A stretch of DNA of 64,000 bases from positions 1 through 64,000 of IMG/VR virus record IMGVR_UViG_3300044949_002421. One strand, given 5' to 3'. Positions within the stretch are counted from its first letter, which is position 1; each line of letters starts with the position of its first letter. Source of the DNA: a virus. The notes under the pieces are model-generated. The model was not told the origin of the DNA and did no database searches. It worked only from the letters and a program-made list of their open reading frames with translations. Positions 4,276 through 27,004 of this stretch are shown one piece after another. The position numbers and the translations under genes are program-made.

Positions 4276-4276
4276 A

Positions 4277-7978: not shown

Positions 7979-8081
7979 AGCCAAGTCTTTGTCAGAAAAA
8001 CGCAGGCTAAACCCAAACTTCGGAATGTGGAAGACTGCGCCATACGGACCCCCGGTTAAAAAATGGCCGAAAAAGAAATAA
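7962..8081 (+). CDS. small basic protein
   Basis: 39 residues starting MKRKNKAKSL, very rich in Lys and Arg. It overlaps both neighbours (17 nt with the previous gene, 19 nt with TerL). It may bind nucleic acid. No family recognised. Confidence 0.45.
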   Translation: MKRKNKAKSLSEKRRLNPNFGMWKTAPYGPPVKKWPKKK

Positions 8082-9799
8082 CGCTCGAAACTGTTCAGGC
8101 TATTGCCAGAAAAGACTTTCTCGTTTGGTGGGAGACATGCACAAGGATCCTGAACAAGGATGCCAAGCTAATTGCCCCGCGAGCCAATTATCTTCAGAGA
8201 CGAGCTTCTGAAATTGTTAAATGGCTGCAAAAAAACAAGCACCCTGTTCGACTGGTTGTGCTTAAACCAAGACAGATGGGGTCTTCCACGATCACATCTG
8301 CAATTATCGCCCACTTTCTTAGGTCAAACCCAAACACCACGGCATGCCTTCTCGGAGACGAGCTTGATACATCTCAAAACCTATTAAACATGGTAAACCG
8401 GTATGTTGAGAACGACATACTGGATTGGGGGCAGACCTACTCCCAGAGTCGTGGAGAATTCAGCAACGGAAGCCGGCTTGTCAAGGAAACGGCCAATGAT
8501 CCGGGCGCTGGACGATCCATGACCCTGCAAGCCCTGCTCTGCTCTGAGGTTGCCCACTACCGAAGGGCCGGGGAGCGTTCCGGGGAAAAGGTTCTGCTGG
8601 CAATTCGAAACTGCGTCCCCTCCTCTCCCAATACTATTGTCATAGAGGAATCCACCCCGAATGGGGCCGGTGGGGCCTTCTACAACACTTGGCAATCAGC
8701 CGTTGAGTTCGAGGATTTTAAGAAAGGCATCATGGGCAACGGGTACATCCGCGTGTTTGCCGCTTGGCATGATTTCGATGAAAATGTTGCCCCGTCCGAC
8801 GACATTACCCTGACGTTCAGAGAGCAGGAGCTTAAGGAAAGATTTGAGCTGGACGACAATCAAATTGCTTGGCGTAGGTCTGTTGTAAAACTTAAGTGCG
8901 GCGGGGACAGCAAGCAGTTTGACCAAGAGTATCCATCCGACCCAGTTTCCTGCTTCCTTACCTCCGGAAGGCCAAGGTTTGACCAAGATGGGCTATCATT
9001 TCAAGAGAAGAACATAAAAGACCCAATCTGTGGGGTTATTGATGTTCCAATGCAAATGACTCGCCCAATCTTTAGGGTAACCGATCCTCAGGAATCATGG
9101 GTGTGGCTATGGGAAATGCCCCAAGAAAACGGATGCTATCTTGTTTCGGTCGATTGCATGACTGGGAGCTCTCAGATTTCCGGGAAAGATCCCGACGCGC
9201 ACTCAGTTTTGGTAATGAAGTCAGGATTCCATGACGCCGGCGGCGTTTATCACAAGCCGAAAGTGGTCGCCAGAGTCAGGCCGCCGTGTCGGGTTGATAT
9301 TGATGTCCTTGCCGACTTTGTTTTGAGGCTCTCCTCTTTCTACGGAGGATGTCTCATTGTTCCCGAGGTTAACGGACCCGGGCTTGCCCTAATTGAGCTT
9401 CTCAAAGAGGACGGAGCAAACATCTACCAGCGAGAAATATTTAACCTTCGGGAATCAAAGAGATCGAAGGCCTTGGGCTGGCAAACCACGGACAAGACAA
9501 GAAGGATGATTATCGAGGAACTCGCCTCGCAGATCAGGGATCATAACGAAAAGGACAGCGGCATTTTTGTTATGTGTAAAACAATTCTGGACCAACTCAG
9601 GAGTTTTGTTGTCTCTGAAAGCGGAAGACCTGAGGCCTCCTCCGGGAAGCATGACGACGATGTGTTGGCATTGGCCATCGGAAACGCAACACTCATGGGG
9701 GCAACTAGATACATATCGCCAAGAGCAATAAGGGAAATGCCCAAAGATTTGAGGGACATTTTCCAAACTAGAAAAACGGCATTAAGCAGCTTTAGCTAG
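8063..9799 (+). CDS. terL: terminase large subunit
   Basis: 578 residues, the usual TerL size. The ATPase half has a Walker A variant 'LKPRQMGSST' (about residues 67-76) and a Walker B-like strand 'LLCSEVAHY' with its catalytic Glu. The C-terminal nuclease half shows the RNase H-like acidic residues in 'LVSVDCMTG' (Asp near 363), 'IVPEVNGPG' (Glu near 434) and 'HDDDVLALAI' (Asp near 531). It pumps DNA into the prohead and cuts it. No small subunit lies next to it; a candidate is at 40865. Confidence 0.95.
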   Translation: MAEKEITLETVQAIARKDFLVWWETCTRILNKDAKLIAPRANYLQRRASEIVKWLQKNKHPVRLVVLKPRQMGSSTITSAIIAHFLRSNPNTTACLLGDELDTSQNLLNMVNRYVENDILDWGQTYSQSRGEFSNGSRLVKETANDPGAGRSMTLQALLCSEVAHYRRAGERSGEKVLLAIRNCVPSSPNTIVIEESTPNGAGGAFYNTWQSAVEFEDFKKGIMGNGYIRVFAAWHDFDENVAPSDDITLTFREQELKERFELDDNQIAWRRSVVKLKCGGDSKQFDQEYPSDPVSCFLTSGRPRFDQDGLSFQEKNIKDPICGVIDVPMQMTRPIFRVTDPQESWVWLWEMPQENGCYLVSVDCMTGSSQISGKDPDAHSVLVMKSGFHDAGGVYHKPKVVARVRPPCRVDIDVLADFVLRLSSFYGGCLIVPEVNGPGLALIELLKEDGANIYQREIFNLRESKRSKALGWQTTDKTRRMIIEELASQIRDHNEKDSGIFVMCKTILDQLRSFVVSESGRPEASSGKHDDDVLALAIGNATLMGATRYISPRAIREMPKDLRDIFQTRKTALSSFS

Positions 9800-9860: not shown

Positions 9861-11483
9861 ATGGCGGAGAAAAAGACCCCCCTTAATACAAAACAATCTC
9901 CCGTTGACCGCAGGGCTATTCAAAATGGGCTAATTGAGGCTCGGCCAGAAGCCGAAGATCCGTTTGGTTATGCCGGCCCGGGCATTTACCCATCTGCCGA
10001 AGGAGATGCCCTAATGGGGCGAGTTGCCGAAGCGCGAGCGCGGGCAATTTACGAGGCCCACGGAAGAAACGCTAATGCCATCGCCAGAATGAAGCTTGAT
10101 CCAAGCTATGCAATTGCAACAGCGGCCGGAATTCAGCTTCCCGGGCACGGAATGGTAAATACGTATAATACGCAAACCGGAGGGCTGGTCGGGAATCCCG
10201 GAGCTGGTCAACGGCCTGCAGGCTCCGGAGGAGCAAACCCGGCGGCAGACAGGGCGCTTAGGAATAGCATTAGCTATAGGGACGCAGGGGCGGCTATGCG
10301 TGGGGCTGGAGATGCCAAGCCCATAAGTTACACCGAGTTTGCGGGCCCAGCGGCGGCAAACGAAACATCCAAGGGCCAGCGCATGGACACGGTTCGTGAT
10401 ACAAGAAATTTGCCGGGCGGGATGAGCGCTCCAGCTCAAGGCCCGGAGCAACAGCCAATAGGGTCCAAGCCTCCGGCTCCAATGACTGACCCTACTTCAG
10501 TAACCCCTCCCCAGACGCCCTCCCAAGGCCAGCCTCAGGAGCAAAAAACTCCGACAGTTGAGAGCACAAAAGGCCCGAGACTTTCCACGAACAGATCACA
10601 GCCGAGCAGAGACGAGGACATGGGCACAACTCGTGGGGCAACTCGCGATGAGGATAGGCGCGTTTCAGAAATATCCATGAGCGCAGATGCAAACCTTCCG
10701 TACGACGGAAGAGAGGGCCCCGGATCAAATCAGGAAAGGCGTGAAATCGCAAAGAAGAATTATGATGCAAGTGTTCAGTCGGAAGCCCGCAAGGATCCGT
10801 TTGCAAAATACAGGACCGAGGCCGGGGATACAGAGGTAGCCCAGCGTACAGGCGAGGTTCAGGACCGCTCTCGCTTTGGCGAAGACAGGGTGGCCGGCCG
10901 GCAAACCTATAAAAACAAAGACGGGAAGGAAATGATTGGCAACACCATGCAAAGGCCGGACGGGAGCACCTACTTCGTAGGCCTCCCCTCTGCCGACCAG
11001 AATAAGGCAGACGCTTTCAATGCCGGAACTAAGGGAGGGACACTTAATCCCTATAATAACTTTGAACCCACCCCTAAAAACTATAAGGCGTCTGCCGATG
11101 ATATAAGGGCAAACTACGCGTTTGGGGCTCCGGCGGGACAACAGGGGTCGCTAATGGCGGAAGCAGAGCCCGATTTCGGACGAGGCAATAGGTCTCAGCT
11201 TGACGCCGACACGGCAAAATTCAGCGCAGGATCGAATTATTCCGGGATTGATAGCCGTGGGAAGCAGTCCTCATCTCTTGCTGGCGGACCGGCTGAAAAG
11301 CCGCAATCCCAAGCGTTTTCCATTTCATCCCCCGGACTCCCCTTTCAGCAGGAGCCAAAAGAAACCTCTCAGGCATACAAGGGCCCTGAGGGCAGTCAGA
11401 ACAACAATCAAGCTCAAGCTGAGCTAAAAGAAAAAAGCAAAAATCTTTCCAAAAAAGGCGGAGAGAGACTCACCTTCGCGTAA
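9861..11483 (+). CDS. disordered virion-associated protein
   Basis: 540 residues of low-complexity sequence rich in Gly, Ala, Pro, Gln and Arg. Proline/glutamine-rich linkers occur near residues 195-235 and long stretches resemble loops. No catalytic motif is seen. It sits between TerL and the giant protein, only 3 nt before the latter, so the two are probably made together. It may be an internal virion or ejection protein that accompanies the giant protein; this is inferred from position. Confidence 0.55.
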   Translation: MAEKKTPLNTKQSPVDRRAIQNGLIEARPEAEDPFGYAGPGIYPSAEGDALMGRVAEARARAIYEAHGRNANAIARMKLDPSYAIATAAGIQLPGHGMVNTYNTQTGGLVGNPGAGQRPAGSGGANPAADRALRNSISYRDAGAAMRGAGDAKPISYTEFAGPAAANETSKGQRMDTVRDTRNLPGGMSAPAQGPEQQPIGSKPPAPMTDPTSVTPPQTPSQGQPQEQKTPTVESTKGPRLSTNRSQPSRDEDMGTTRGATRDEDRRVSEISMSADANLPYDGREGPGSNQERREIAKKNYDASVQSEARKDPFAKYRTEAGDTEVAQRTGEVQDRSRFGEDRVAGRQTYKNKDGKEMIGNTMQRPDGSTYFVGLPSADQNKADAFNAGTKGGTLNPYNNFEPTPKNYKASADDIRANYAFGAPAGQQGSLMAEAEPDFGRGNRSQLDADTAKFSAGSNYSGIDSRGKQSSSLAGGPAEKPQSQAFSISSPGLPFQQEPKETSQAYKGPEGSQNNNQAQAELKEKSKNLSKKGGERLTFA

Positions 11484-11486
11484 GAC

Positions 11487-14400
11487 ATGGGCTTGGATTC
11501 AATATTGGGCGGAAGCCCGAGAAACAAGGGCGAGGCCTACGAGGGTCCGGTCGCCGGCGGGATCATGAGCGGGCTAAGGGGAATGAAGTCCGACGAGAGG
11601 TCCGCCGAAGGGGAGTTTGAGCAAGAGCAAAAAGAGCAAAACAAGGCCTTTGAGGGCGGCAAAAAAGAAGTTTTCGAAGGTGCCGGAATATCCACCTACA
11701 CAGACCCGCAGGAAGGATTGCAGCCAAAGGTTTCTCTTGATCCCAATACCGGTATTAACAGGCTAGAGCGTCCCGAGGCCGAGTTCTCCGTCCAGCGTAG
11801 GCTCCCTACGGGCGAACTTGTCGACGATACCCTAAAGACAGACAAGTACGGCGGCGCAAAGGACAAAACTGCAAAGAAGCGGTCTCTGATAGTTGGCAAA
11901 GAGGCGTCATCTGATCCAAGAACCCCCAAAAGCGGTATTTACGAGGAATTCGAGGACCCAAGACAGCCCGACTTAAAAAACTACAAGTTTATCGGGGGCT
12001 ACGAAGAGCTTTCAAATTCTCAAGACCTAGGGGTCCGCGATGTGGCAAGAAAGGGCCTTCTCGAGCAAAATCAAAAGGCATCTTCCCTGCTCTCATCGGA
12101 GCTCCAGACTCAAATCGACGAAATTGACCTCAAAGAACGAGAGCTCCGCGATATGGAGGCGGCCTCAAAGACAACTGGAGAGTTGCCCATCTTCGAGGGG
12201 AAACAGCTTCAGCCAGAGGATTCGGCAAAAACGCGCCTTGGTCTTCAGCAGCAAATCACAGAACTAAAAAAACAAAGGGTTGCGCTTAAGCAGATTGAAA
12301 AGCAGGGCGTTGCCATGGACTTACTTCGTCAGGCCAAAGAAAGGGCCCTGCGCGAAGGAAGAAACCCGTCCGACGATCCGGTTGTAAAAAGCCTTCAAGA
12401 AACCTACAGAACCATTGGAAGGGAGACACCGGAAGAGGCATTCATGGCCAAGCCGGATCAGGTTGCCGTTGCCGGCGGGAAAGGAACCTTGATGATTGAG
12501 GGGGCAACCCCAGATGTTCCGGAGCAGCAAAAATCATCGTTTTTCAAAACAGCCGGAAATGATTTGCGCTCAAAGCTGAAGATTGAGCAAGAGTCCGGAA
12601 ACGTAAATGTGGAGAAGGCCAAGCTCTCGATCAAGGCTCAGGAAGAATACAATCAGGCCAGCAAGGAGATACTTCCCGCATCCATCAGGAAGCAGACAAT
12701 CAAGCAGCTGGTCGACATCTCCAACAGGGAGCTAGAAGAGGCAACGTCGCGCTGGGGCGAAATGAGCCAGCAGGAACAGGCAGAATTTAACGCCAGATTT
12801 GAGGGACGACGACAAGCAATCCAAAGGCTTGGCGATGAATATAAGGCCCTAGAGCCATCGGCAAACGCGGCCTCCGAGAGGGTCGGAACTATTTTTGAGA
12901 CAACTAGAGAGGCCGAAAAGTCTCTCAACGAGTCTTTTCAAAAAAAAACTGAAGAAATAAACAGAGAAGCCAACGCTTTTGCGAGAGCGCAGTCAGAGAG
13001 AGCGTCAGCAGGAATTCGGGACGAATACCTTAAGAAGCAGGCCAATTTCAATTCCATGGGCCAAAGATTTGGACAGCTGGCCCAAGCTGGTGATGACGCA
13101 GGAATTGTAAAACTTGCCCAAGATTACGTTGCAAGCGGCGGAAACAAGCAAGACGCCGACAGGATGATTTCAGACTACGGGAAATATAAAAAGTCAAAGG
13201 ATGGTCAGGGGTGGCTGGCAAACTCTATCGCATCGTTTATGCGGGCCCCGCTTATTGCCTCCCAAGAGTCGGCGGCTGGACTTTTCAAAATAGCCGCAAG
13301 CGGGCTAAGGGCAAAAGCCGCAGGCAAGGACGACGTTATGGATGCCATCGGCCCATCGGGATGGCTGGCAAAAGTGCTTCCAAGCCTAGAGAGCAATCCA
13401 GCATTGGCCCCTGTAAGGGTTGCCTCAGATATGGCCGGACAGGCCATTCTGGATAAGATTTACCAAACCAAGGCCGCCAAGCCGTTTGTTGAATACATCG
13501 CCGACTGGATGGACGGGGCGGCATCATCGGCCAAGGGGAATGTTGAGTTTCTTAAGAAGGGCTTTTATGTCGATCCCCAGTTCGAGGCATCAACAGCCGG
13601 CAATTTCCTAAAGGGCATCGGCGACTATGCTTGGACAGCCCTCCCCTACATAGCTCTCCGCAGCAAGGGCATTCCAGTTGGATTGGCCACAAATGTTGGA
13701 CGTCTTTATACGGAAGCTAGGGACGATCAGGAGCAGACCTATCAGGCAAAGCTCGCCGAGTTCAAGGCCGGCAAAATCAAAGACGAGCCAAAGCCCATGG
13801 ATGAATCTGATGCCCATATTGCCGCACTAAGGTACGCCGGGTTGGGCGGATTTATTGATACCGTATCCGACGCAATTGGCATGAGGCTGGCCTTTGGCCT
13901 TCTAAAGGGCGCGGCCGCAGTAACGCCAAAAACAGTTGGAAGCTTTTTCAGGCAAACGGCAATTCAGATTGGGGAAAAGAAAGTCCCGATGTGGCTGACT
14001 CCTCCCCTCGCCGGCGCGACTGAGTTTGGTGCCGAAGGGTCCCAAAAACTGATTCTAAATGCATTGGCCGAGAAGTACGAAAACTGGGACCCCAATAGGC
14101 CTTGGAACGAGGGTGCATTCGAAGAGGCCATGATGGGCTTTATGCTTGGATTCGCCCTTCCTGTTATCGGTGGTGCCGGAGGGGCCATTTACAAGAAGAC
14201 CGTAGTCATCCCGTCGATGCTGATGGAAAATGATGGCCTAGACCAAGTCTCAGTCCAATACCAAAACCTTTCCGTCGACGTTCCTATGGGTGGATGGAGG
14301 CAATATGCAGAAACGGTTACTCCCTCCGAGGCAAGCCCTCAGTTTGAACTTAACGCCAGACAGCCGTTTTCCATTCAAAACGAGCTTCGGGGAACCGGCG

Positions 14401-17400
14401 TCACTTGGGCAATTGCAGTTGGCCAGAGAATTGATTCAGAGATTTCAGCGACCAACTCACAGATTCAGCAAGCCTCAGATCCGGCCCAAGGAAAAATACT
14501 TCGCCTTAAAAGAAACGATTTACTCCTCCAGAGGTATAACCTTATTCAGGCGATGCAGGGAGACGCCGCCTTGCGCTTTTCCCTCCAAAATGAAATCGGC
14601 TCACTACCTGAACAGCCGCTTGCCAAGGGAGACGCAAGCCTACAGCAGGCCGCCCTAGCAGCAGCCAAGCATTCGATCGGCGCGCCAGTCACAAAGGCAG
14701 AATTAAAGATCAAGGTCGGCGGAACACAGCTTTTCCAGCAAACCGAGGACGGGAAAACAATTGTATCTCCATCATTTATGCGGTTCCTGTCCGGCAAGGC
14801 CCCGACGCTGGAATCGGTGGTGGCCAACAACCAAAACCTATTGGACTCTGCACCGCCAACCACCTTGGCCGAACAGCCGCCGGTTATTTCAGAGGTCAGG
14901 CCTCAGGAAGAGATTCGGGCAGAAAGGGATCAGGCGGCAAGGCAGCAGCTTGAAGCCGAGGCTCGGCCACAGCCAGCCACAGCCCCAGAGCAACAGCCAA
15001 CCCCCATGGGGCAAACTTGGGCCGTTCCATATACAAAGAACGGCAAAATCAAGGGGACTCTCACGATACAGGCCGATAACGAGAACAAGGCCAAACAGCT
15101 GGCCCTGCAACAGCTCAAGGAAGAGGGTGCAAAGAGCGTCTCTTTTGGGGATGTCCGGCTGGCCGAACAGCAAGACCTTGTGGGCCAAGAGCCAGCCGCG
15201 CTTCTTGCGGGTCCGGATCAGCAGAGAAAACGTGTCGGCGGAGCAGTTAATCCATACATGCGCCGGCTAGAGGGAAAAAACACAAAAGAAAGATACATCA
15301 ACGCAAGGCGCAGATTTGAAAGGTTCGCCGGCGAGGCCAGATCAATCTTCAAGGCTTCGATAGGAATTCAGGAAAGCACGGAAGCCAAAAAGCCATTTTC
15401 AGCAAGACTGGCCGACGACGGGACAATCACACTCGTCGTAAATCCAAAGCTATTTTCTGCCTTTGATGCCAAAAACCCTGAATTTAACAATCGAGCCTAC
15501 TCAGAAGAATTTCGGCACATGGCCGACTTTATTGCCAGCAATCTAAAGGCAAATGAATCCGGCCGCTCCGACTACCAGCAGTTTTACAAGGAAGAGAGGT
15601 CAAGGCTCTATCAAAGAATTTTTGAGACCAGCAAGCAGGATCCTCGCGTCCTTAATGCCCTCATGGCGTCTGCATCTCTTTATTTTGGCGATCAAGGCCC
15701 CCCACTAAAGGAGGGTGGGTACACGGCAGAGGAATTCATGGATTGGGCTGAGGGCTCCGGGATAAGCGATGTGACCCTCATGGGAGAGCTTCTGCAGCAA
15801 CTTGGAACAAGGCGGAAGACCGAAGCCGCAGTTGAGGTTGCCACGGCCATGAATAAGGGAGGTGGATCTATTACGGCCAGCCTCATGGAGGTTATCCGAG
15901 ATTACCTGAAGTCTATTCTTAGGGCCATCAACGGTCTTCGCCGAGCAATTACCGAAACAAACCCCGAAGTTGCGGCAGATTTGGATTCCCTGATCCAATC
16001 GATCAATGATGTCTTGAATATGCAGGCCTCGCCACAGGAGGAGGCTCAGTCTGGCATCGACACGGCAACTCAAAGGCGGCTTAGGGACATGGGCTTAACG
16101 CCGGCGGAGATCGCTCAGATGAATCCGGATCAGGCAAGGGAAAGGCTTCAGGGCCAAGTTCAGGTATCAGCCCCAGCCCAAACTCAGGGGCTAAAATCAA
16201 CCAACACCAGAAAGACCGAGTATGGCGTGGTGCGTTATGACCTAGATGTCGTTCCCCTGAGCGAGCTAAACAACATGGCCGGAACGGAGCTCCAGCTCCG
16301 GGATAGGACTGGAGACGAGGGATATGCGGCCAAGGTTGCCGTGATTGCCCGTGACTGGGATAAGGACGAGGCAGCGTCCAGAGACACGGGAGAGCTCGAC
16401 ACAGGGCCGGCAACCGTGATTGCGGCAGAAAGCAACCCATACGGGGTCAATCAGGCCGGTTTTGACATTATCGCCGGCCACGGAAGGACTGAGGGCTATT
16501 CCTCGGCCCCGGACGACAGAGTTGCCGACTATGTCGCAAAACTTAAAGCCAAATACCCCGATCTGGCAGCTAAGATTGACGCAATCATCGCCTCCGGCCA
16601 GAGGCCAATGCTTGTCAGAAAGATTGATTGGCAAAATACGTACAACCCATCCCTTGGTAACGAAAAGCAACATCTTCGCCGTATTGCAAGGGATGCCAAC
16701 CTAGGGACCGGGAACGAGAATGACGCTGAGGTGGCCCTAGCCGATGCCTTGGAAATCTCCGACGACAAAGACCTTAGCCTCCCTCAGGAAGTTATTGTTA
16801 ACGGGCAACCCAGCCTCCTCAACCAAGATGGGACGCCGGCTGGCAACAATGATGAAATCTTAGCTAAATGGCTTCGCATTTTTAGCAACGACAGCGACAG
16901 GCGATACTATCAAAACGGAGTCTACACACCCGAATTTGAGGCGAGAATCCGAAGGGCAATCTTGGGCTATGTCTTCGCCCCTACAAATGAAAAGGGCGAG
17001 ATGGCCCTCACAAAGCAGACCTTCGACACAATTAACATGCTGGTCTCTCCAACGATTGCTCGGAACAGCGGGATCGCGACCCTTCAGCAAGGACTTGAGA
17101 AGGCCTCCCCTTCCCTGTTCCGGGTAAAGCAGGATTTCCAGAAATACGAAAGCCTTCTTGGGCAAGACGCAAAAGACGCAAACCCAATTGTGGCCATACA
17201 AAAGTCTCTTTCCGACTACCTTGCCTACAGGGCCGAGCGCGAGCAGGCGGCGAGAAAGAGTGGGGACAACAGGGCCATCGCCATGGTTGGGCTGGCTGAG
17301 TATGAGGACTACATCAATCAATCCGGATTGTTTGGGTCGATCAGCCCACAGCAGGCCATGGTGCTTGTTCCGATTGTAAGGGACGGAAGGCTTGACGGAA

Positions 17401-20400
17401 TCCAAGGGGTCGCGGCTCCCCTAGCGAAAATCCAGAACGCTCGCGGCATCAAGGGGTCCCCGGACCGGATTGCGGCCTATATCGCCAACTATTCAGACAT
17501 GGTGGCAAGCATCTACAGGGAGGCCTCGGAGGCGATGCTCCCCGGGCTGGAAACAAAGCTCACTCCGGACATGAACTTAAACATGATCCGGATTGCCCTA
17601 GACAAAGCCGGAGCCATCTATCCGGACAACTCAAGGCCTCAGGCACCGATATTCCCAGCCCAAAGGGATACGCTTGAAATGGCGGCGAGAACACCAGAGC
17701 TGGATTCATCTCTGGGCGAAGGCAAAGGCAAGGTGGAGATCCGACCGGAAATCAATTACTCGAGAATTCTCAATCTTCTTGGCCCCAAGATGTATGAAAA
17801 GAATCTTGTTGAGGTCGCCGTTAAGGAGCTTTTACAGAACTCGTTTGACGCCGCCCGGGCCGCCGGAGCAACCAACGAAAACCCCGGACAGGTAACGATA
17901 AACCTAGATTATTCAAGTCGAACAGTCACGGTGAGGGACGACGGAGTTGGCATGACTCCGGAGATCATTCAAAAGGCCTTTTTCACAATTGCGGGAACCC
18001 ACAAGGAGCAAAGCGCGGAAAACACATCGGGTGGGCTTGGCCTTGCCAAGATGGCGTTCCTGTACGGATCAGACAGGGTCAGGGTTGTAAGCGTTAGAAA
18101 CGGCATTAAGTCCACGGTTGCCACGGATCGCCAAACCCTCCTAAACCGAGACCCGATCAATGTTGTAACAGAGAAAACATCGGAGCCGTCCGGAACAATC
18201 GTCGAGGTCGTCATTCCGCAAACAATTGAAGATTCAGAGGGAAATACGAAACAACTATTTTTCCCGCCAGAGCCGGCATTCCTAAGCAAGCCGTTGATTG
18301 GCCCGATTAAGGTAATACTTACCGCCGGGGATCCATCAAGCCCGTACAGAACAAACAAGATTCTAAATCTTGGCATAAACCAGCAGGACTACCAAAAAGA
18401 GACAAGGTTTGGATTTTCTTGGGGCAATATCGATGTCTACATCAACCCGGAAAGGCAGAAATATCCAGCTATTGAGATTCTTTCAGCCGGACTGCATCAG
18501 TTCGGCTTAAGTCGCTACGATGTGTTTGGGTGGCAGGAGGAGGACGTACTTCCGTACAACATAGTTCTCGATGTAAGGCCGTCGGTTAAACCTGAAAACG
18601 CCGCCTACCCATTCAACAACTCCAGAGAGGGATGGCGTGGCACCATCAAGGAGGATGTAAACGCCATGTATGGATACCTCAGGCGCATGGCAACCGAGCA
18701 AAACCTCCTTGAGGCCAAAGAATCATTTTCAAACTTGGAAAAAATGCCTCAGTTTGACCCCCAGAAGGATCTTACGCCCGGTGAGCTTGCAGACATCGCG
18801 GCCGCCCGGCCCAAGCCGCGCCCCACGGCCCCCATTGAGAAGCCGGAATTTGTCGATTTTTCGGGCGACAATGTGGTTATAAGGTATTCCGAACAATCCG
18901 GGATAAAGCCAAAAGAAATTGCAAAAGAAGAGTACGTCAAAAAGTCGTTTAAGCCGGAAAAAGACATCAATTTCCAATCAGCGGCTCTTGATGTCAGCGG
19001 GATGGATCCTCGGGTACCCCTGTTTCACAACAATACCAACATCGATTTCTCGGCTCAGGCAGACGGAGGTGCGGCCAAGAAGATGTTCGCAAGCCTTGGC
19101 AACGCGCTTTCCGGATTTATGAGGGAGTTCGGAGCTAAGGTTGGGCCCAATGTTAACCCCTACTCCGCCATGGCCTCGACCGGTGCGGATGGGTGGTTTT
19201 CCGGCATCTCCATAGACAAGGAATACAGGGGCTTAAATATGATTAAGCCATTTAAGTCCATCTGGTTTAACCCCGCCGGCTTGTCAGAGGACGCCATGGT
19301 TAGCCCAGAGGCCGCCGCCCTTGAGACAATTCACGTTTTCATCCACGAAATAACCCACGTCAACGCAAGGAATGAGGGCTCCGGGTTCACCTCGGAGCTC
19401 GCAAACAACTATGCAAGAATCCGTGCCTTCGGCGTTGACGACATAGCAACAGAACGGATACTTGCTAGCATATATGCAAGACATTGGAAGGACATCAATG
19501 ACCTCAGAACAAAATACACCAACTTCAGCACAAAGAATAGTGCAAGAGGTTTTCAATCGTCATCGGAATCGCTCGGAACCGGAACAGAGGCAAGCCAACC
19601 TAATCAGCCTCAAGACAATCCACAGGAATCTGTCGGAACTCAAGAACAGGGACGAGGCGGCAATAGCAGAGTTGGCGCAGAAGATAGCGGAACTGGAGCA
19701 AGCCTAGGCGAGATCATAGCCTCACGCGCCCGGACCGAGCGGGAGGCATTAAAATACCCAAATAGATACGCGCTTTCACTTCAGGCCAGATCCCCTGACC
19801 TTTTCGAGTCATCTGAAGAGCCGGAAAGCGAGGAGGATGCCGAAACCGGAGCAACCGAAGAGTCGGCCAAGAATGCCTATTTAGTCATACAAGAAATTGC
19901 CCCAATGGAGGGGCTTACCCGCACCGACCAAGGGATGAAGGAGGGCAGAATCCGTCCCGGCGGCAAGATAATCACCTACCTAGTCAACAAATCGGATTCC
20001 AGCGGAATGTCAGTTGCGGATCGGTTCTTTTCTCGTGGTTACGGAGAGGAGCAACTTCGGGAAATTATCTACGACAAGATGGTCGACGTTCTTTCGAAAT
20101 CGGCCAGCGGGAAACAGCTTGCCAAAGACTTTTTGGCGACCCGAGTAAACGCAAGCTCAAGCGACTTGGCCCTCTACAGCGAAGCCAGAAAGGCCTTTGT
20201 TCAGAAGATCATCAGAAAACTTTTGGTCGGCGGAAACAAAAACCCATCCATTGAGGATGTTGTTGCCGAGATGAGCGACAACGACCGCGCCCTTGGATTT
20301 GAAATGAGGCACATTGTCGGAGCGCGAGAGGAAATACGCCTTAACAACTTCCTAATGCGCTCGGTGGAAAATCACATTCGAAAGCTCGTTGGAAACTACG

Positions 20401-23400
20401 ATCAAGAGGGAAGGTCTCTAATCGTGACATCGGCAGAGGCAAGGGAAAGAAGGCCCACCGAAATCTCTGACGAGGACACAGAATCCATGGTCGAAAGAAA
20501 GTTTGTCAATCCGGATACCGGGAACGAGCTAGACCAGAGAGCAGACGAGTCCGCAAACCTTCAGGAGACACTCCTCGCCGAGTCAGGGACGGCAGCCGAG
20601 GTCATGGCCAGATACCTTGGGCCAGACAGCCTTCGGATTATTGAGATGAAGGTTCGAGGAATGACCTTTCAGGCCATAGCAGACGAAGAGGGGTTCACGG
20701 GGAACCGGCCTGACAATATAGCAAGATCCAGATTTGAAGAGGCCTACTCCAAGGTTCTAAATGCCATAGATGGCATCTATTCGGTAAAGAAGTCGCTAGA
20801 AGCAAGAGATTATCTTGGCGATGAGGAAAAAACAAAACTTAATGATTTTGACAAATTTCTTTCTGGGAGACTTGGACGCGGGGAAACATTTGAGTCAATC
20901 GCCTCGGCAAGGGCGGAGGCACAAAAGGCAATCAAAGACTCCGGAACTGGGGCTGGCCAGCTTGAGCTTGGGCTTGACGCCAGAACTCCTGACCTGCCCC
21001 CTCCCCGCCTTCTGGCAAAGTATTTTGAGCTTCGGGACAAGATTAAGTCCGGCGAATTCGAACCAAGCGATATGGACATGTTTGAGCGAATTGAGTCTAT
21101 GGCCATCAAGTTTGGCTGGCCAATTCCAGTCCAGCTGAGGCTTTTCGACATTCCAAATATTGTAAGGAGGGCTTCTGATCAGAGGAGCCAGCAGTCAGCG
21201 GGGCTTCAGGACGAGTTTGATTTTGGCCCTACTGAGCTTTTGTCGAGAACCCCTGACCTGATGAGTGCCGACGAGCTTCAGGAAGCTCTTGATGGTGACT
21301 GGATAACAAATGACGAGATTCAGGCTGCACTCAGGAATGATTCTGCCGGCGACAAGCGCGGGTTGGTCGATTACGGGAAGGGATCCGAGGCAAGCGCGGT
21401 CATCAGGGCCGGAAGAGAAGCCACCCCTAACCCTGAGCCATACACCAACGAAGAGGCCATGGCGAAGGCAGGAACAATCAGCCGAGGCCAAATATTAGGC
21501 CGGCTGGCCGGGCTTGAGGCCGGCGAGGTGTTGTCCAAAGACGAGGATTACGCGGCCCAGCGTGAACTCAACCAGCTTGCTCTTGAGGCATTCGCATCCG
21601 AGGACGAGAAGCAGATCAACGATTTCCTATATTTACAGAGGCAGTATGACAAATCCGGAACAGAGGCGGCCAGATCCTTGCAGGGTAGGAAGCCATTCAA
21701 TCCTGACGACAGGAATAGGAAGGCCGTCTATACCCCCCTCACCGCCATCGACAGGCGCGACCTTCAAAAAGAAGCCATTAACCTGACGGCAAAGCTAAAG
21801 GCAGACCTTTCCGTAGCCGAAGCATCCCTAAACGAGCAAAAGGCTCGGGCAAGGGCTCAATTTGGGCCTAATTTGCCTCAAGAATGGGCTGATTATATTT
21901 CCCAGCAAGAGGGCGCAATCGCCCAAATGAAGGCTGACATTGAGGATGGCGGGGTGCGAGTTGCCGAAAGACAGATTTTAGACAGGAATGCAAAGAAAGC
22001 CGACGAGGCCTTGGGCAAGGTCGGCAAGAGCCTCAAGGGGCTCGAAGAAGACAGCATGAAGAAGAAGCTGCGGACCGGCCAGACAGCCGGGCAGATTCTT
22101 GAGTCCATCAAAGACACCCAGCTTCGGGATGCAGTCCAATTATACCTTTTGGGCTATTCCGTTAAAGATATTGAAGCTCAGACTGGAATCAAAAACGGCA
22201 GAAACAAAATTAAGCTGGCTATCCTAAAGGGGCTACGACCAGAGGCAGATCGCCGGTTTGTCAGAGTCCTTGAGCAAGTTAAGGCCGGCAAAATGAGCAA
22301 AAAGCAGCTCATGATGGCCCTGAAAAAACACTCTGAGGGCCAAAGCCTGCTTGCCAGAGCTCCCGAGGATCCCAACCAAGACAACTTCACCGTGGATGAG
22401 GCAAGAGAGATGCTTTACGACGCCTTCGGTCTAAACACGGAAAACCTAGAAAACAAAGAGAGCGATCCCTTGTTTGGCTACGACGACCCACACGCCGCCA
22501 ACAAAATTTCCAGCATTATTTCCGAGGGCATCAATGGCCCTGCCTCATGGGGCAAAATAGCCTCCGATGTCTTTTCCTCCTTCATTTTCACGGGGGCCCC
22601 ATCTCTCGCCGCCAACGTGGCAACAATCCCCTTCGCCAAGCTGGCCATACCAATCCACCTATTTGTCGAGGCGATGACCACGTACTACAGGGCCGGAATT
22701 CGCGGCATCAAAATGACCGAAACGGTTTACGACAAAGTTCCTGTTTTCGATGAGGAGGGCAACCCAGCCGGGACGCGGGTAGCTCCTAAAGAAGTGGAAA
22801 TCGGTGCGCCATATCAAACCCTTGGTCAGGCAATAAAGGGCGGGTTTTCAGAAGCCTTCCGTGCCTACAGGGAGCTTGGCTGGCTTGGGTCAGATGGGGA
22901 GGCCCTGAAAAAGGCCGTGACTGCCTTTAACACCGAGACAATCCAGTTCGGCGTTGAGCAGGGCATTGTCAATGTTTCGGATGTCCGCCTTCGCGAATCT
23001 GGGGTTCTTGATAAATCAATCCCCGGCTTGGCCGGCAAGGCCGTCAGGCTCGGGGTAAACATCTTGCTCGCCGGCGACGAATACAACAAAACGATGCGAG
23101 CCAAGGCCTATGTCGGCGCATTCGCTTACCGGCTTGCCAAGGCAAAGGGGCTTGAGGGCGATGCGGTCAATGAATACGTAGAAAGCGAGTTTGCAGACAA
23201 GACATCCCTGTCTTGGAGACTTGCTGTCGACCGCACTCTTCGCGACACCTTTACCCAGCGTCTTTCCATACGTGGGGACGAGGAGCTCTTAACTCCACAA
23301 CCGCTTTGGGAGAAGGCCAAGGGGCTCACTCGCTCGCTCCGTGACTATCAGTCGACGGGCGAGCTTCTTGGGCTCGCCCCAGAGGCATTGACGATGATCA

Positions 23401-24773
23401 ATATGGAGCTTGGCCGTGCCGCCAGCCGGGTTGCCCGTGGGTCCAAAATCAAGGTTTTTGGAAGAACTCTGAGCCCAACGGAATTGGCCCTCAGATTCGC
23501 CCAAAGCTTCTTAATTTTGATTAGAAGCCCATACAACATCGCCCGCGCTTCAGCGGCATACTCGCCGTTTGCCATGGCCAATGTTGCCCTAAGGGCGTCC
23601 CGTGGTCGCGTTGCCAACACGATGAATGTTTTTGACTTCAATACTCTATCCCAAAGGCATGCGGAAGCACTTCTGGGGATTACGGGGCTCGTATCCCTTT
23701 TTGCCTTTGCCGAGGGGGACGATGATGATGACGACAAGACTGTGCTCATAACCGGGTCTGGAGGTGTCAGAACAAAATATGGCAACCCATCTACTTCCGT
23801 CATTATTCGGACTCCACTTGGAAACTATGTGATCCCATACGGGAGGTACGAGCCCGTTAGTGCGCTCGCCTATTTGATTGATGCGGCAAGGGCTACGAAG
23901 CAAGTTACAAATGAGAGACAGCCCGCATCCGAGGCCGTTGGGAACTACGTTCAGGAGTTTCTCAGGTATCCATTCACAAAGACTTTTGCAAAGGCGGTTC
24001 GTGATTTTGGGAAGCTGACTGGTTTCGATAATCCGTCCGACACCGGCAAATACAAGGGCTACGATGTCTTGCGCGAAAGAATTTCCTCCATAGCCATCCC
24101 AAACTTCTTTAAGAGGCTATTTGAGCCCGGCGCAGTCACCTTTGGTGATGAGTCTTGGGATGTTGACAGAATGACCGGCTGGGGGCCGACAGAAATGGCC
24201 GGATGGGTTAACTCGTTTTTGCCCGGCCTCCCTGCCCTAACTGGAGAGGAAGACATCTCCCTGCCGCCAAGATATAGTGCCGACCTAAAGGTAAGAGACA
24301 GGGAGATTACCGGAGCAGAGGTTCTTGCAAAGAATGTCGGGATTCCGGAGCGCGCGGCTAGACTTATGGGCGGATTAAGCAAGGGTCTGGTTCCGGACGG
24401 AATTGCCTATGTGGAATCGAAGAAAGGGAAACTCGATAAATTTGTGTCTGCCTACAACGCAAGATTCCCACAAACAAGATATCAGCCAAAGGCCCCCAAT
24501 CGCTTTATTCAGCTAAAGGATAAAGACGGAATCTCGACAAACGAAGAGATGACCCCGTCAGAATACAAAACCATGCTGGCCCTAGCCTCAAAATATGCCG
24601 GCGATAGAATTGATAATGTCCTTACCGACGAAAGAATTTCAAACCCAACCGAAGCCACAAGAAAACTTGTAGACTCCATCCGAGAGGATGCCGTAAGCCG
24701 TGCAAGACAAGCAGTTCGGAATGCGCGACGCGCAAAAGAGAAAAGGGCTGTTGAATCGGCCGGCGTTAGGTAG
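11487..24773 (+). CDS. giant polyvalent virion protein (4,428 aa)
   Basis: About 0.49 MDa. Order of recognisable parts: charged coiled-coil N-terminus (1-560); amphipathic 'large polyvalent protein' segments with the typical 'TEFGAEGSQK...GFMLGFALPVIGGAGGA' (about 835-905); ParB/DdrB-like domain (about 1575-1760, with 'AGHGRTEG' near 1664); GHKL/HSP90-type ATPase (about 2085-2370: 'KELLQNSFDAA' N-box near 2113, 'DDGVGM' near 2151, 'GGLGLAK' near 2182); zincin with HEITH near 2620; sigma-like segment (2790-3095) ending in an HTH; second HTH near 3547-3585; C-terminal segment with 'LIRSPYNIARASAAYSPF' near 4010 and an Asp run near 4080. Known polyvalent proteins of phages and conjugative elements are thought to be injected with DNA to block host defences. 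It lies between TerL and portal, fitting a packaged ejection protein. Its start lacks a good SD. Confidence 0.88.
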   Translation: MGLDSILGGSPRNKGEAYEGPVAGGIMSGLRGMKSDERSAEGEFEQEQKEQNKAFEGGKKEVFEGAGISTYTDPQEGLQPKVSLDPNTGINRLERPEAEFSVQRRLPTGELVDDTLKTDKYGGAKDKTAKKRSLIVGKEASSDPRTPKSGIYEEFEDPRQPDLKNYKFIGGYEELSNSQDLGVRDVARKGLLEQNQKASSLLSSELQTQIDEIDLKERELRDMEAASKTTGELPIFEGKQLQPEDSAKTRLGLQQQITELKKQRVALKQIEKQGVAMDLLRQAKERALREGRNPSDDPVVKSLQETYRTIGRETPEEAFMAKPDQVAVAGGKGTLMIEGATPDVPEQQKSSFFKTAGNDLRSKLKIEQESGNVNVEKAKLSIKAQEEYNQASKEILPASIRKQTIKQLVDISNRELEEATSRWGEMSQQEQAEFNARFEGRRQAIQRLGDEYKALEPSANAASERVGTIFETTREAEKSLNESFQKKTEEINREANAFARAQSERASAGIRDEYLKKQANFNSMGQRFGQLAQAGDDAGIVKLAQDYVASGGNKQDADRMISDYGKYKKSKDGQGWLANSIASFMRAPLIASQESAAGLFKIAASGLRAKAAGKDDVMDAIGPSGWLAKVLPSLESNPALAPVRVASDMAGQAILDKIYQTKAAKPFVEYIADWMDGAASSAKGNVEFLKKGFYVDPQFEASTAGNFLKGIGDYAWTALPYIALRSKGIPVGLATNVGRLYTEARDDQEQTYQAKLAEFKAGKIKDEPKPMDESDAHIAALRYAGLGGFIDTVSDAIGMRLAFGLLKGAAAVTPKTVGSFFRQTAIQIGEKKVPMWLTPPLAGATEFGAEGSQKLILNALAEKYENWDPNRPWNEGAFEEAMMGFMLGFALPVIGGAGGAIYKKTVVIPSMLMENDGLDQVSVQYQNLSVDVPMGGWRQYAETVTPSEASPQFELNARQPFSIQNELRGTGVTWAIAVGQRIDSEISATNSQIQQASDPAQGKILRLKRNDLLLQRYNLIQAMQGDAALRFSLQNEIGSLPEQPLAKGDASLQQAALAAAKHSIGAPVTKAELKIKVGGTQLFQQTEDGKTIVSPSFMRFLSGKAPTLESVVANNQNLLDSAPPTTLAEQPPVISEVRPQEEIRAERDQAARQQLEAEARPQPATAPEQQPTPMGQTWAVPYTKNGKIKGTLTIQADNENKAKQLALQQLKEEGAKSVSFGDVRLAEQQDLVGQEPAALLAGPDQQRKRVGGAVNPYMRRLEGKNTKERYINARRRFERFAGEARSIFKASIGIQESTEAKKPFSARLADDGTITLVVNPKLFSAFDAKNPEFNNRAYSEEFRHMADFIASNLKANESGRSDYQQFYKEERSRLYQRIFETSKQDPRVLNALMASASLYFGDQGPPLKEGGYTAEEFMDWAEGSGISDVTLMGELLQQLGTRRKTEAAVEVATAMNKGGGSITASLMEVIRDYLKSILRAINGLRRAITETNPEVAADLDSLIQSINDVLNMQASPQEEAQSGIDTATQRRLRDMGLTPAEIAQMNPDQARERLQGQVQVSAPAQTQGLKSTNTRKTEYGVVRYDLDVVPLSELNNMAGTELQLRDRTGDEGYAAKVAVIARDWDKDEAASRDTGELDTGPATVIAAESNPYGVNQAGFDIIAGHGRTEGYSSAPDDRVADYVAKLKAKYPDLAAKIDAIIASGQRPMLVRKIDWQNTYNPSLGNEKQHLRRIARDANLGTGNENDAEVALADALEISDDKDLSLPQEVIVNGQPSLLNQDGTPAGNNDEILAKWLRIFSNDSDRRYYQNGVYTPEFEARIRRAILGYVFAPTNEKGEMALTKQTFDTINMLVSPTIARNSGIATLQQGLEKASPSLFRVKQDFQKYESLLGQDAKDANPIVAIQKSLSDYLAYRAEREQAARKSGDNRAIAMVGLAEYEDYINQSGLFGSISPQQAMVLVPIVRDGRLDGIQGVAAPLAKIQNARGIKGSPDRIAAYIANYSDMVASIYREASEAMLPGLETKLTPDMNLNMIRIALDKAGAIYPDNSRPQAPIFPAQRDTLEMAARTPELDSSLGEGKGKVEIRPEINYSRILNLLGPKMYEKNLVEVAVKELLQNSFDAARAAGATNENPGQVTINLDYSSRTVTVRDDGVGMTPEIIQKAFFTIAGTHKEQSAENTSGGLGLAKMAFLYGSDRVRVVSVRNGIKSTVATDRQTLLNRDPINVVTEKTSEPSGTIVEVVIPQTIEDSEGNTKQLFFPPEPAFLSKPLIGPIKVILTAGDPSSPYRTNKILNLGINQQDYQKETRFGFSWGNIDVYINPERQKYPAIEILSAGLHQFGLSRYDVFGWQEEDVLPYNIVLDVRPSVKPENAAYPFNNSREGWRGTIKEDVNAMYGYLRRMATEQNLLEAKESFSNLEKMPQFDPQKDLTPGELADIAAARPKPRPTAPIEKPEFVDFSGDNVVIRYSEQSGIKPKEIAKEEYVKKSFKPEKDINFQSAALDVSGMDPRVPLFHNNTNIDFSAQADGGAAKKMFASLGNALSGFMREFGAKVGPNVNPYSAMASTGADGWFSGISIDKEYRGLNMIKPFKSIWFNPAGLSEDAMVSPEAAALETIHVFIHEITHVNARNEGSGFTSELANNYARIRAFGVDDIATERILASIYARHWKDINDLRTKYTNFSTKNSARGFQSSSESLGTGTEASQPNQPQDNPQESVGTQEQGRGGNSRVGAEDSGTGASLGEIIASRARTEREALKYPNRYALSLQARSPDLFESSEEPESEEDAETGATEESAKNAYLVIQEIAPMEGLTRTDQGMKEGRIRPGGKIITYLVNKSDSSGMSVADRFFSRGYGEEQLREIIYDKMVDVLSKSASGKQLAKDFLATRVNASSSDLALYSEARKAFVQKIIRKLLVGGNKNPSIEDVVAEMSDNDRALGFEMRHIVGAREEIRLNNFLMRSVENHIRKLVGNYDQEGRSLIVTSAEARERRPTEISDEDTESMVERKFVNPDTGNELDQRADESANLQETLLAESGTAAEVMARYLGPDSLRIIEMKVRGMTFQAIADEEGFTGNRPDNIARSRFEEAYSKVLNAIDGIYSVKKSLEARDYLGDEEKTKLNDFDKFLSGRLGRGETFESIASARAEAQKAIKDSGTGAGQLELGLDARTPDLPPPRLLAKYFELRDKIKSGEFEPSDMDMFERIESMAIKFGWPIPVQLRLFDIPNIVRRASDQRSQQSAGLQDEFDFGPTELLSRTPDLMSADELQEALDGDWITNDEIQAALRNDSAGDKRGLVDYGKGSEASAVIRAGREATPNPEPYTNEEAMAKAGTISRGQILGRLAGLEAGEVLSKDEDYAAQRELNQLALEAFASEDEKQINDFLYLQRQYDKSGTEAARSLQGRKPFNPDDRNRKAVYTPLTAIDRRDLQKEAINLTAKLKADLSVAEASLNEQKARARAQFGPNLPQEWADYISQQEGAIAQMKADIEDGGVRVAERQILDRNAKKADEALGKVGKSLKGLEEDSMKKKLRTGQTAGQILESIKDTQLRDAVQLYLLGYSVKDIEAQTGIKNGRNKIKLAILKGLRPEADRRFVRVLEQVKAGKMSKKQLMMALKKHSEGQSLLARAPEDPNQDNFTVDEAREMLYDAFGLNTENLENKESDPLFGYDDPHAANKISSIISEGINGPASWGKIASDVFSSFIFTGAPSLAANVATIPFAKLAIPIHLFVEAMTTYYRAGIRGIKMTETVYDKVPVFDEEGNPAGTRVAPKEVEIGAPYQTLGQAIKGGFSEAFRAYRELGWLGSDGEALKKAVTAFNTETIQFGVEQGIVNVSDVRLRESGVLDKSIPGLAGKAVRLGVNILLAGDEYNKTMRAKAYVGAFAYRLAKAKGLEGDAVNEYVESEFADKTSLSWRLAVDRTLRDTFTQRLSIRGDEELLTPQPLWEKAKGLTRSLRDYQSTGELLGLAPEALTMINMELGRAASRVARGSKIKVFGRTLSPTELALRFAQSFLILIRSPYNIARASAAYSPFAMANVALRASRGRVANTMNVFDFNTLSQRHAEALLGITGLVSLFAFAEGDDDDDDKTVLITGSGGVRTKYGNPSTSVIIRTPLGNYVIPYGRYEPVSALAYLIDAARATKQVTNERQPASEAVGNYVQEFLRYPFTKTFAKAVRDFGKLTGFDNPSDTGKYKGYDVLRERISSIAIPNFFKRLFEPGAVTFGDESWDVDRMTGWGPTEMAGWVNSFLPGLPALTGEEDISLPPRYSADLKVRDREITGAEVLAKNVGIPERAARLMGGLSKGLVPDGIAYVESKKGKLDKFVSAYNARFPQTRYQPKAPNRFIQLKDKDGISTNEEMTPSEYKTMLALASKYAGDRIDNVLTDERISNPTEATRKLVDSIREDAVSRARQAVRNARRAKEKRAVESAGVR

Positions 24774-24784: not shown

Positions 24785-27004
24785 GTGGCTTCACCCCAAA
24801 TCGAAAACCTTGTCAATCAGGCAGAAGAGCTGGAAAAGGCTCTTGAGAACGCAAAGCCCGAACAGAACGAGACTGCCTTGGGCGGGGGTGTGCCTGCCGA
24901 GACCGGGTTCTCGTCTCCCTATAAGCTCACCCAAGAGCAGGAAGCAATTCTTGTCGAGTATGCGGTAGAAAGACTTCGGAAAACGGAGACGGAAATGGGC
25001 CGCTCCCTGATTCGAGGAGTGTCTTGGGCCAGCCAAACCGGCACAATGGCTGCCCACGAGTCCTTTTTGGGCCGTCGTCAGGTTTACGAGTGGCTCTACG
25101 AGAACAACGTTGAGTGGCGTCCTACTGTCATGGGGGGGATCTTTGAGCACAGCAACCTGATTGTGCCGGTGACCCGACGAATCGTCCGGCAGATGATTGC
25201 TCGGGCTCAAAAATATTTTATCGGCACAGATCCTTGGTTCAGCACATTCCCTCAGGGGCCTGCAGACCGAGATGTTTCCGAAAGGGTTGAAAAGTATGCC
25301 CGATGGAAGTTTGATAAAACCAAGCTGAAGGAGGCCGTAGCCATGATCCTCCAGATGGCTTTTGTTCGCGGAGAGTGCGTGGTAAAGACAACCCACCAAA
25401 AGAAAGAGTCAATCTTTCAGCGGAAGGCCAAGGTTTTGGTTGATGTGAACGGAAACGACATTTTGGCGTCCGACGGAGACATTATAACGGATATGGACTC
25501 GTTTGTCCCGGGTCCCGACGGAATAACCATGATCCTTCAGCGTGACGGGGTCACCCAGCAGCCAATCGTCCCAATCTTTATCGAAAAAACCATTACACGG
25601 AAAATCATTCTGCATGAAGGCCCGACAGCGGAGCCAGTCTACTATCAGGACTTTATTTGCCCGCTTAACGCAACCAGCGTTGACGATTCAGACTTTTGTG
25701 CCCACCTCTACGATGCTCCGGTCATGGAGCTTGCCGACTTCTATTCCAAGTCAAAAAGCGAGGAGACGCCAGAGGCCGAGCTTATGAGAATTCAGGCGGC
25801 CATTGAGCAGATTCGGCTCTCGGCCGGTGAAAGCAGCAATCCAAAGACAGCCGCAAAACAGGCCCGTAGCGAGCGCGGCGAGGCAGAAGTCACCAACGAT
25901 CAGGAGAACCCAACGATTGAGATTGCCGAGTGCTATTTGCGATATGACGCCAACGGCGACGGGATTACAGAGGAAATCATGCTGATGCTTGATGTCCGCA
26001 ATCGAAAGGCGATCTACTATGACTACCTCGCCAACGTAACGCCGGATGGCAAGCGGCCCTTCACGGTTGTCCGGATCAATCCGGTTGACGGGCGCTGGTA
26101 TGGGCTCGGTGGCGTAGAGCAATTCAAGACATCGCAGGACTTCATCGATCTGACCATCAATCGCCTCAACTTTGCCCAAAGTGCCTCCGGAAGGGTCACC
26201 TTCTGGCGGCCTGACGCCACTTTTGAGGGGTCGGCCAACCCAAACCTGATATTAAACACAGGTGGGACGTATACTCTGCGTCCGGGCTTCAACGCGGCCG
26301 ATGCCCTCACTTATGTCACCCTGCCGGAAACCAAGAACCAAGACCTAAACTTCATGCTGAACTACTTTACTCAGCTCGTTCAGCTTGAGTCCGGTGTCGT
26401 GCATGCCGGCGATCAGGAGTTTTCGGGCCTCCCGAGCTCCAAGCTTGCAACCGGAATCCGCTCAATTGACCAAGCCGGAAGCGAGATGTTTAGCCAGTAT
26501 TTATTGAGTCTGGAGAGCGGTTTAAACCAAATCCTGAGCAGGCTCATGCACATTCTTTTGGACAACTTGGATCGAGCGGAAGCCTTTACCTATCTTGAGG
26601 GCGATGCAATTAGCTTGATCTCCGTTAAGCCGGAAGAGGTTAAGGACTTTAACCTAAATGTTAAAATACTGCTTACCCGATACCACGGAGAGCAACAGCT
26701 ACAAAGTAATGCTCAGGCTGCAAATATGGTGGCCCAGTTCTACGGGCTCCCACCGGAAGTTCAGCAAAAGGTCTCCCTATTTTACAGGCAAAGCCTAAAG
26801 GCTCTTGGGGTCATGGAAGCTGATTCAATTATTGTCCCATTTGAGCCTCCCCCTGCCCCGGGCGGAATCACGCCAGACGGAAGGGTTTTTGGTCAGGCAG
26901 GATCTCCGGGGTCCCCGGCTCAGTCGGTCGGAAACGCGCGTCAAGTTCCTCTGGACGCCGGGCCGGCCGGCGGTGCAAGCCCGGCCACCGGCACCGCAGT
27001 CTAG
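24785..27004 (+). CDS. portal protein
   Basis: 739 residues, GTG start. The N-terminal half 'RRQVYEWLYENNVEWRPTVMGGIFEHSNLIVPVTRRIVRQMIARAQ' is typical of podovirus portals. The middle contains the 'NPVDGRWYGLGGVEQF' and 'QDFIDLTINRLNFAQSASG' crown/wing elements and the later 'FMLNYFTQLVQLESGV' helix. The C-terminal 70 residues are Pro/Gly-rich and probably disordered. It forms the dodecameric DNA entry ring that TerL docks on. Position after TerL and before the capsid genes agrees. Confidence 0.88.
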   Translation: MASPQIENLVNQAEELEKALENAKPEQNETALGGGVPAETGFSSPYKLTQEQEAILVEYAVERLRKTETEMGRSLIRGVSWASQTGTMAAHESFLGRRQVYEWLYENNVEWRPTVMGGIFEHSNLIVPVTRRIVRQMIARAQKYFIGTDPWFSTFPQGPADRDVSERVEKYARWKFDKTKLKEAVAMILQMAFVRGECVVKTTHQKKESIFQRKAKVLVDVNGNDILASDGDIITDMDSFVPGPDGITMILQRDGVTQQPIVPIFIEKTITRKIILHEGPTAEPVYYQDFICPLNATSVDDSDFCAHLYDAPVMELADFYSKSKSEETPEAELMRIQAAIEQIRLSAGESSNPKTAAKQARSERGEAEVTNDQENPTIEIAECYLRYDANGDGITEEIMLMLDVRNRKAIYYDYLANVTPDGKRPFTVVRINPVDGRWYGLGGVEQFKTSQDFIDLTINRLNFAQSASGRVTFWRPDATFEGSANPNLILNTGGTYTLRPGFNAADALTYVTLPETKNQDLNFMLNYFTQLVQLESGVVHAGDQEFSGLPSSKLATGIRSIDQAGSEMFSQYLLSLESGLNQILSRLMHILLDNLDRAEAFTYLEGDAISLISVKPEEVKDFNLNVKILLTRYHGEQQLQSNAQAANMVAQFYGLPPEVQQKVSLFYRQSLKALGVMEADSIIVPFEPPPAPGGITPDGRVFGQAGSPGSPAQSVGNARQVPLDAGPAGGASPATGTAV

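What the first reader, a model, noticed from the sequence alone, without database searches (positions are those of the whole stretch)
11487..24773. 4,428-residue polyvalent protein with ATPase, ParB-like, zincin and sigma-like parts
Combines a GHKL ATPase, a ParB/DdrB-like domain, an HEITH zincin, a sigma-like segment, at least two HTHs and long polyvalent linkers between TerL and portal. Polyvalent proteins are known, but this set, with a GHKL ATPase next to a zincin and a sigma-like HTH, looks unusual. It would be packaged and injected, acting before phage transcription begins.
Basis: partly seen in the sequence, partly recalled or inferred. Interest (0 to 1): 0.85.

Follow-up and report, generated by a model that had tools for sequence, protein, structure and literature searches.

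The report
Giant phage protein with swappable modules
A bacterial virus encodes one 4,428-residue protein, probably carried in the particle and injected into the host, in which whole functional blocks (here an ATPase plus a protease-like domain) are swapped in and out at short repeated junctions.

Summary
The ORF is real: 4,428 aa, no stop, under purifying selection, and full-length in relatives with TerL and portal beside it. It is a phage polyvalent protein, a known kind. An intact GHKL ATPase and an HEITH zincin motif are present; the DdrB/ParB part is weak by profile but keeps its GHGR motif. The sigma-like claim is not confirmed for this protein: no profile hit; only a relative shows a sub-threshold region-4-like HTH. 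The key finding comes from comparison. The GHKL+zincin block (aa 2072-2756) is a swappable cassette: absent in one relative, replaced in another by an unrelated module also found in Erwinia phage giants, and less diverged at synonymous sites than its flanks. All four edges of large indels lie within 10 aa of a short motif, L-x-[AS]-R-x-P-[DE], conserved as protein and not as DNA. The C-terminus is homologous to 'internal virion protein D' of T7-like marine phages, supporting packaging and ejection. Best reading: an ejected multi-module protein with a constant chassis and exchangeable cassettes, possibly cut at the junction motif. Packaging, cleavage and counter-defence are inferred, not shown. 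An overlapping +1-frame gene may lie inside the cassette.

The parts
11487..24773 (+). Whole giant ORF, 4,428 aa
   Evidence: relatives
13164..14666 (+). Constant N-terminal chassis region aa 560-1060, with one strongly hydrophobic stretch aa 881-902 (14127-14192)
   Evidence: 90/71/43% identical in the three relatives
15204..16106 (+). Conserved region aa 1240-1540 with EEFRH (aa 1340) where a zincin would have HExxH; the first His position is Glu in all four giants; possibly a dead zincin
   Evidence: no convincing family match
16233..16625 (+). DdrB/ParB-like domain aa 1583-1713, GHGR motif at 1664
   Evidence: E=0.002, below Pfam cut-off
17685..17699 (+). Junction motif 1, ARTPE (aa 2067-2071), left edge of cassette A
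17700..19754 (+). Cassette A (aa 2072-2756): GHKL ATPase plus HEITH zincin; absent from P3, replaced in P5
17808..18221 (+). GHKL (HSP90/rIIA-like) ATPase domain aa 2108-2245
19344..19358 (+). HEITH zinc-protease motif aa 2620-2624
19498..19707 (+). Candidate overlapping gene in the +1 frame, 69 aa from ATG 19498 with GGAAGGA just upstream (longer starts at 19474 and 19462)
19785..19799 (+). Junction motif 2, ARSPD (aa 2767-2771), right edge of cassette A
19794..20966 (+).
20979..20993 (+). Junction motif 3, ARTPD (aa 3165-3169); slot B (inserts of about 105-133 aa in P2 and P3) directly follows
21243..21257 (+). Junction motif 4, SRTPD (aa 3253-3257); slot C (about 866 aa insert in P3) directly precedes
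22119..22286 (+). Second HTH-like stretch aa 3545-3600 (SVKDIEAQTG)
   Evidence: weak, E=0.02; the C-terminally related L026 protein has a sub-threshold HTH before the same domain
22353..22367 (+). Junction motif 5, ARAPE (aa 3623-3627), before the C-terminal domain
22797..24116 (+). C-terminal domain homologous to internal virion protein D of T7-like marine phages (aa 3771-4210)
   Evidence: hhalign prob 96.8, E=2.2e-10; bridge
8063..9799 (+). TerL (context)
24785..27004 (+). Portal protein, SU10 type (context)

Best explanation
The gene makes a polyvalent ejection protein. A constant chassis (N-terminal helical/hydrophobic region, DdrB/ParB-like domain, HTH region, C-terminal internal-virion-protein domain) is built into the particle and enters the cell with the DNA. 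Accessory effector cassettes plug in at a few fixed slots marked by the short junction motif L-x-[AS]-[RK]-x-P-[DE]. In this phage the main slot holds a GHKL ATPase and an HEITH zincin, which probably counter a host defence, by analogy with rIIA. The protein may be cut at the junction motif so that modules separate during assembly or after ejection. Shown: the ORF, domains, homologies, cassette presence/absence and replacement, motif position and protein-level conservation. Inferred: packaging, ejection, cleavage and counter-defence.
For: Chassis and cassette: P1 vs P5 is colinear at 561-2071 and 2733-4425 and breaks at the cassette; P3 keeps both motifs with 12 aa between them in place of 695 aa. 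P5's replacement module (aa 1687-1960) is about 40% identical to a module of the DarB-like giants of Erwinia phages PEp14/Pavtok/Stean, and related to 126 IMG/VR stretches. Cassette pS between P1 and P2 is 0.53, against a minimum of 0.64 and mean of 0.70 for 120 other blocks of that length, so it probably moved separately. Motif: 5 copies against 0.38 expected; all four edges of large indels within 10 aa of a copy, random placement about 5e-7; one match in 11,155 aa of other window proteins; copies use different codons, so selection acts on protein. A C-terminally related giant (L026) has its own junction motif L-x-T-Q, 6 copies against 0.76 expected, 0 of 2000 shuffles. Virion role: C-terminal homology to internal virion protein D; position between TerL and portal; similar-sized giant in JC1 virions (PMC9144972). 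Function kept: GHKL dN/dS 0.061, zincin 0.079.
Against: No proteomics and no cultured member. The virion homology rests on one domain at about 25% identity. The motif was first noticed by eye; a blind search for repeated patterns puts it above the shuffles only in P2 and P3, and ties with chance patterns in P1. It was not found in PEp14, CSP3 or Y7 giants, nor as a general feature in 35 polyvalent proteins. No protease is identified: P3 carries the motif but no HExxH at all. The rIIA match covers only the ATPase domain, and no defence-system model matched.
Confidence: 0.55

Rival explanations
1. Same chassis and cassettes, but the junction motif is only a linker or docking element; the protein stays whole and works as one chain.
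For: No protease found; motif absent as a general feature of other polyvalent giants; linkers at junctions need no cleavage.
Against: Residue-level conservation of R, P and D/E in otherwise diverging linkers, with different codons; phage P1 DdrB is known to be processed (PMC5512222).
Confidence: 0.35
2. The motif copies are recombination scars: cassettes moved by homologous recombination through short repeated DNA.
For: Cassette edges coincide with motif copies; the cassette has a different synonymous divergence from its flanks.
Against: The DNA of the copies differs at synonymous positions within one protein and between proteins, so little DNA identity is available; the amino acids are what is kept.
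Confidence: 0.1
3. The giant is a cytoplasmic protein made during infection and not packaged; the GHKL part acts like T4 rIIA from inside the infected cell.
For: The ATPase domain is closest to HSP90-like/rIIA-like models; rIIA is made in the infected cell (general knowledge).
Against: Position between TerL and portal; C-terminal internal-virion-protein homology; a similar-sized giant found in virions.
Confidence: 0.12
4. One reading: the HTH segment is a sigma factor that starts phage transcription at once, together with the ATPase and zincin.
For: Sub-threshold sigma-region-4/ECF hits in P3 and in L026 (phrog_351, E=0.0039).
Against: No hit for the window's own protein at E up to 10; no sigma fold match, though the model is poor; no region 2 recognised.
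Confidence: 0.06

Closest known systems
Phage polyvalent proteins (Iyer et al. 2017, PMC5512222)
   Same: Huge multidomain chain with unrelated activities, zincin and DdrB/ParB-like parts, next to virion genes
   Different: GHKL ATPase is not mentioned in that paper's text; an accessory block bracketed by a repeated junction motif is not described there
DarB-like giants of Bcep22-, PEp14- and JC1-type phages (4,500-4,900 aa)
   Same: Similar size and place in the late region; relative P5 shares a zincin module with PEp14; JC1 gp69 is in the virion
   Different: No SNF2/methylase hit in this giant; no blastp match between it and PEp14, CSP3 or Y7
Internal virion protein D of T7-like marine podoviruses (CRP-804, CRP-403, S-CBP2)
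   Same: Homologous domain in the C-terminal part
   Different: Those proteins are 773-1,221 aa and lie among tail genes; only this domain is shared
T4 rIIA
   Same: GHKL ATPase domain of the HSP90-like group
   Different: Here an internal domain of a giant; no similarity beyond the ATPase; no rIIB family seen in the window scans

Membership tests
Polyvalent protein | Several unrelated domains in one very large polypeptide | tested here: met
Polyvalent protein | Encoded beside virion structural genes in phages | tested here: met
Polyvalent protein | Zincin-like metallopeptidase (common, about 36% of members) | tested here: met
   By motif only: HEITH in P1/P2, HEILH in P5; none in P3; no family-model match for HEITH
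Polyvalent protein | DdrB-like ParB domain | tested here: inconclusive
   Pfam E=0.002, below cut-off; GHGR conserved in four giants
Polyvalent protein | Delivered with the DNA in the virion | not testable with these tools
   only indirect support
T4 rIIA family | GHKL ATPase domain | tested here: met
T4 rIIA family | Protein starts with the ATPase and continues into an rIIA-type C-terminal part | tested here: not met
   the match ends after the ATPase; the domain begins at aa 2108 of 4428
Internal virion protein D | Homologous C-terminal domain | tested here: met
   bridge
Internal virion protein D | Ejected and forming the DNA channel | not testable with these tools
Sigma-70 factor | Regions 2 and 4 recognised by profile or fold | tested here: not met

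The most novel reading that the evidence does not exclude
The giant is a true phage polyprotein: exchangeable effector cassettes separated by a lineage-specific cleavage site (L-x-[AS]-[RK]-x-P-[DE] here, L-x-T-Q in another phage-type giant), cut by a protease other than its own zincin, so that one packaged chain delivers a changeable kit of separate proteins; in addition it hides an overlapping small gene.
Probability: 0.27. Interest if true: 0.78.

Novelty: new variant of a known kind. Interest (0 to 1): 0.58.

Why it matters
How phages carry many early-acting proteins into a cell in one packaged chain, and how they change that kit, is an open question. Here the slot, its edges and two different contents can be read directly from four relatives, which gives a testable rule (cassettes sit between short motif copies) and candidate counter-defence modules. 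The link to internal virion protein D suggests which part belongs to the ejection machinery.

Tried and rejected
AlphaFold of the HTH segment gave pLDDT 66 and no PDB match; of the GHKL+zincin cassette pLDDT 33.5, unusable. Generality of the junction motif: not seen in PEp14, CSP3, Y7 or by blind search in 35 polyvalent proteins, though L026 has a clear analogue. A motif match in the scaffold-like protein 32638-33690 lies in an overall conserved stretch and does not follow the P5 dialect, so I do not count it. Idea that the HEITH zincin cuts at the motif: rejected as the only protease, because P3 has motif copies and no HExxH. rIIA identity beyond the ATPase: no support. N-terminal region against internal virion protein D: no match. 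P3's slot-C insert (867 aa): no match in phages or families. No defence-system model matched. Collection scans with single regions reached few relatives. The overlapping ORF has no phage hit.

Full report
What was checked. The window is the first 64,000 bases of a 64,799-base viral record. The reported ORF exists as stated: 11487-24773, plus strand, 4,428 aa, no internal stop. It follows TerL (8063-9799) and a 540-aa gene without matches in Pfam or PHROGs (9861-11483), and precedes an SU10-type portal (24785-27004). Its first 6.5 kb have no DNA match in 50,697 phage records, and at the protein level only its ATPase part matches there. The giant in the window is called P1 below (not phage P1).

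Relatives. IMG/VR holds three further giants and one C-terminal fragment: P2 (L002, 86%, 4,524 aa), P3 (L003+L004, the two ends of one contig whose 42-aa overlap is identical, 66-76%), P5 (L010, about 41%, N-terminus cut by the contig end) and L015. The portal next door is 97, 94, 80 and 81% identical in P2, P3, P5 and L015, so the giant evolves faster than its neighbour. TerL is found in the P2 and P3 records; the P5 contig starts inside the giant.

Domains. GHKL ATPase: strong (HATPase_c_3 2.8e-14), closest to HSP90-like and rIIA-like models, with intact nucleotide-binding motifs and dN/dS 0.061 between P1 and P2. Zincin: HEITH with a downstream glutamate, identical in P2, but no family model matched. 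DdrB/ParB-like: sub-threshold Pfam hit, GHGR kept in all four. A second zincin-like place (aa 1340) has EE in place of HE in all four and is probably not catalytic. Sigma-like: not supported for this protein; a helix-turn-helix is plausible because P3, which has a tandem copy of this stretch between motif copies, scores against HTH and sigma region 4 just below cut-offs. The C-terminal 800 aa are related to the C-terminal part of 'internal virion protein D' of Roseobacter and Synechococcus T7-like phages: directly by profile comparison and through a third giant, L026, from a Verrucomicrobiales MAG contig, which matches both sides. The name 'internal virion protein D' is the depositors' annotation.

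Cassettes. Aligning P1, P2 and P3 shows three large indels. The largest is the whole GHKL+zincin block (aa 2072-2756), missing from P3, where the two flanking motif copies stand almost next to each other. P5 is colinear with P1 up to 2071 and again from 2733, and carries a different block there, whose zincin module is shared with the giant DarB-like proteins of Erwinia phages and with 126 IMG/VR stretches, many of them inside other large proteins. Between P1 and P2 the cassette has lower synonymous divergence (0.53) than any of 120 blocks of equal length elsewhere (0.64 or more), as expected if it was exchanged more recently; part of that drop comes from the possible overlapping gene at its end, but the GHKL part alone is also low (0.58).

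Junction motif. The motif L-x-[AS]-R-x-P-[DE] (core [AS]-R-x-P-[DE]) occurs five times in P1 (0.38 expected) at aa 2067, 2767, 3165, 3253 and 3623, all at module junctions. The four edges of large indels are 0, 1, 3 and 10 aa from a copy; random placement does that with frequency about 5e-7 (the alignment places the edges and the test was made after seeing the pattern, so this is approximate). Copies differ in codons, so the amino acids are selected. P5 has a drifted form (L-x-A-K) and L026 a different one (L-x-T-Q). A blind search does not find such a motif as a general feature of other polyvalent giants. I read it as a candidate processing site; a linker or docking role is almost as likely.

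Mechanism. Most likely: a chassis-plus-cassette protein, packaged and ejected, with the GHKL+zincin cassette acting against host defence. The rIIA analogy rests on PMC7824862, which lists rIIA-type GHKL proteins as poorly understood counter-defence, and PMC8594841, which shows a T4 rIIAB fusion mutant blocked by RexAB. A 4,515-aa giant in JC1 virions (PMC9144972) shows that proteins of this size can be virion components.

Limits. The contigs are metagenomic, no host is known, only four long members were found, structure predictions were poor, and no function was tested.

Noticed in passing
window 19344-19707 (aa 2620-2740 of the giant): Synonymous divergence between P1 and P2 collapses (pS 0.12-0.25 against about 0.70) and substitutions are flat over codon positions (10/11/11, against 13/2/45 upstream). 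A +1-frame ORF (69 aa from ATG 19498, GGAAGGA just before it) is conserved there, about 80% by eye; a candidate overlapping gene inside the giant ORF (no phage hit). Recent recombination is the alternative.
   Followed up: partly
L026 (Verrucomicrobiales MAG JAGNEJ010000044) 2-11413: A polyvalent giant of at least 3,803 aa with methylase/SNF2-like, ART, LPD3, LPD37 and the same C-terminal domain, an intein-like stretch inside the helicase (read by eye), and six L-x-T-Q junction motifs.
   Followed up: partly
window 58315-60632: Neighbouring genes with an amidoligase (PF12224) and a weak glutamine amidotransferase (GATase_6) match, as in peptide-modifying gene pairs.
   Followed up: no
window 37220-39736: Three proteins very rich in Ser, Gly and Thr, with long S-rich stretches, after the capsid genes.
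   Followed up: no
window 47251-47832, minus strand: A 193-aa protein with a DnaA C-terminal DNA-binding domain (PF08299, E=1.8e-18).
   Followed up: no
window 27678-30953: A 1,091-aa protein with an MBG/Ig-like domain match shortly after the portal; similar ORFs stand at the same place in P2, P3 and P5.
   Followed up: no
L004 5011-7611: P3's slot-C insert of 867 aa, bracketed by motif copies; no family or phage match.
   Followed up: partly
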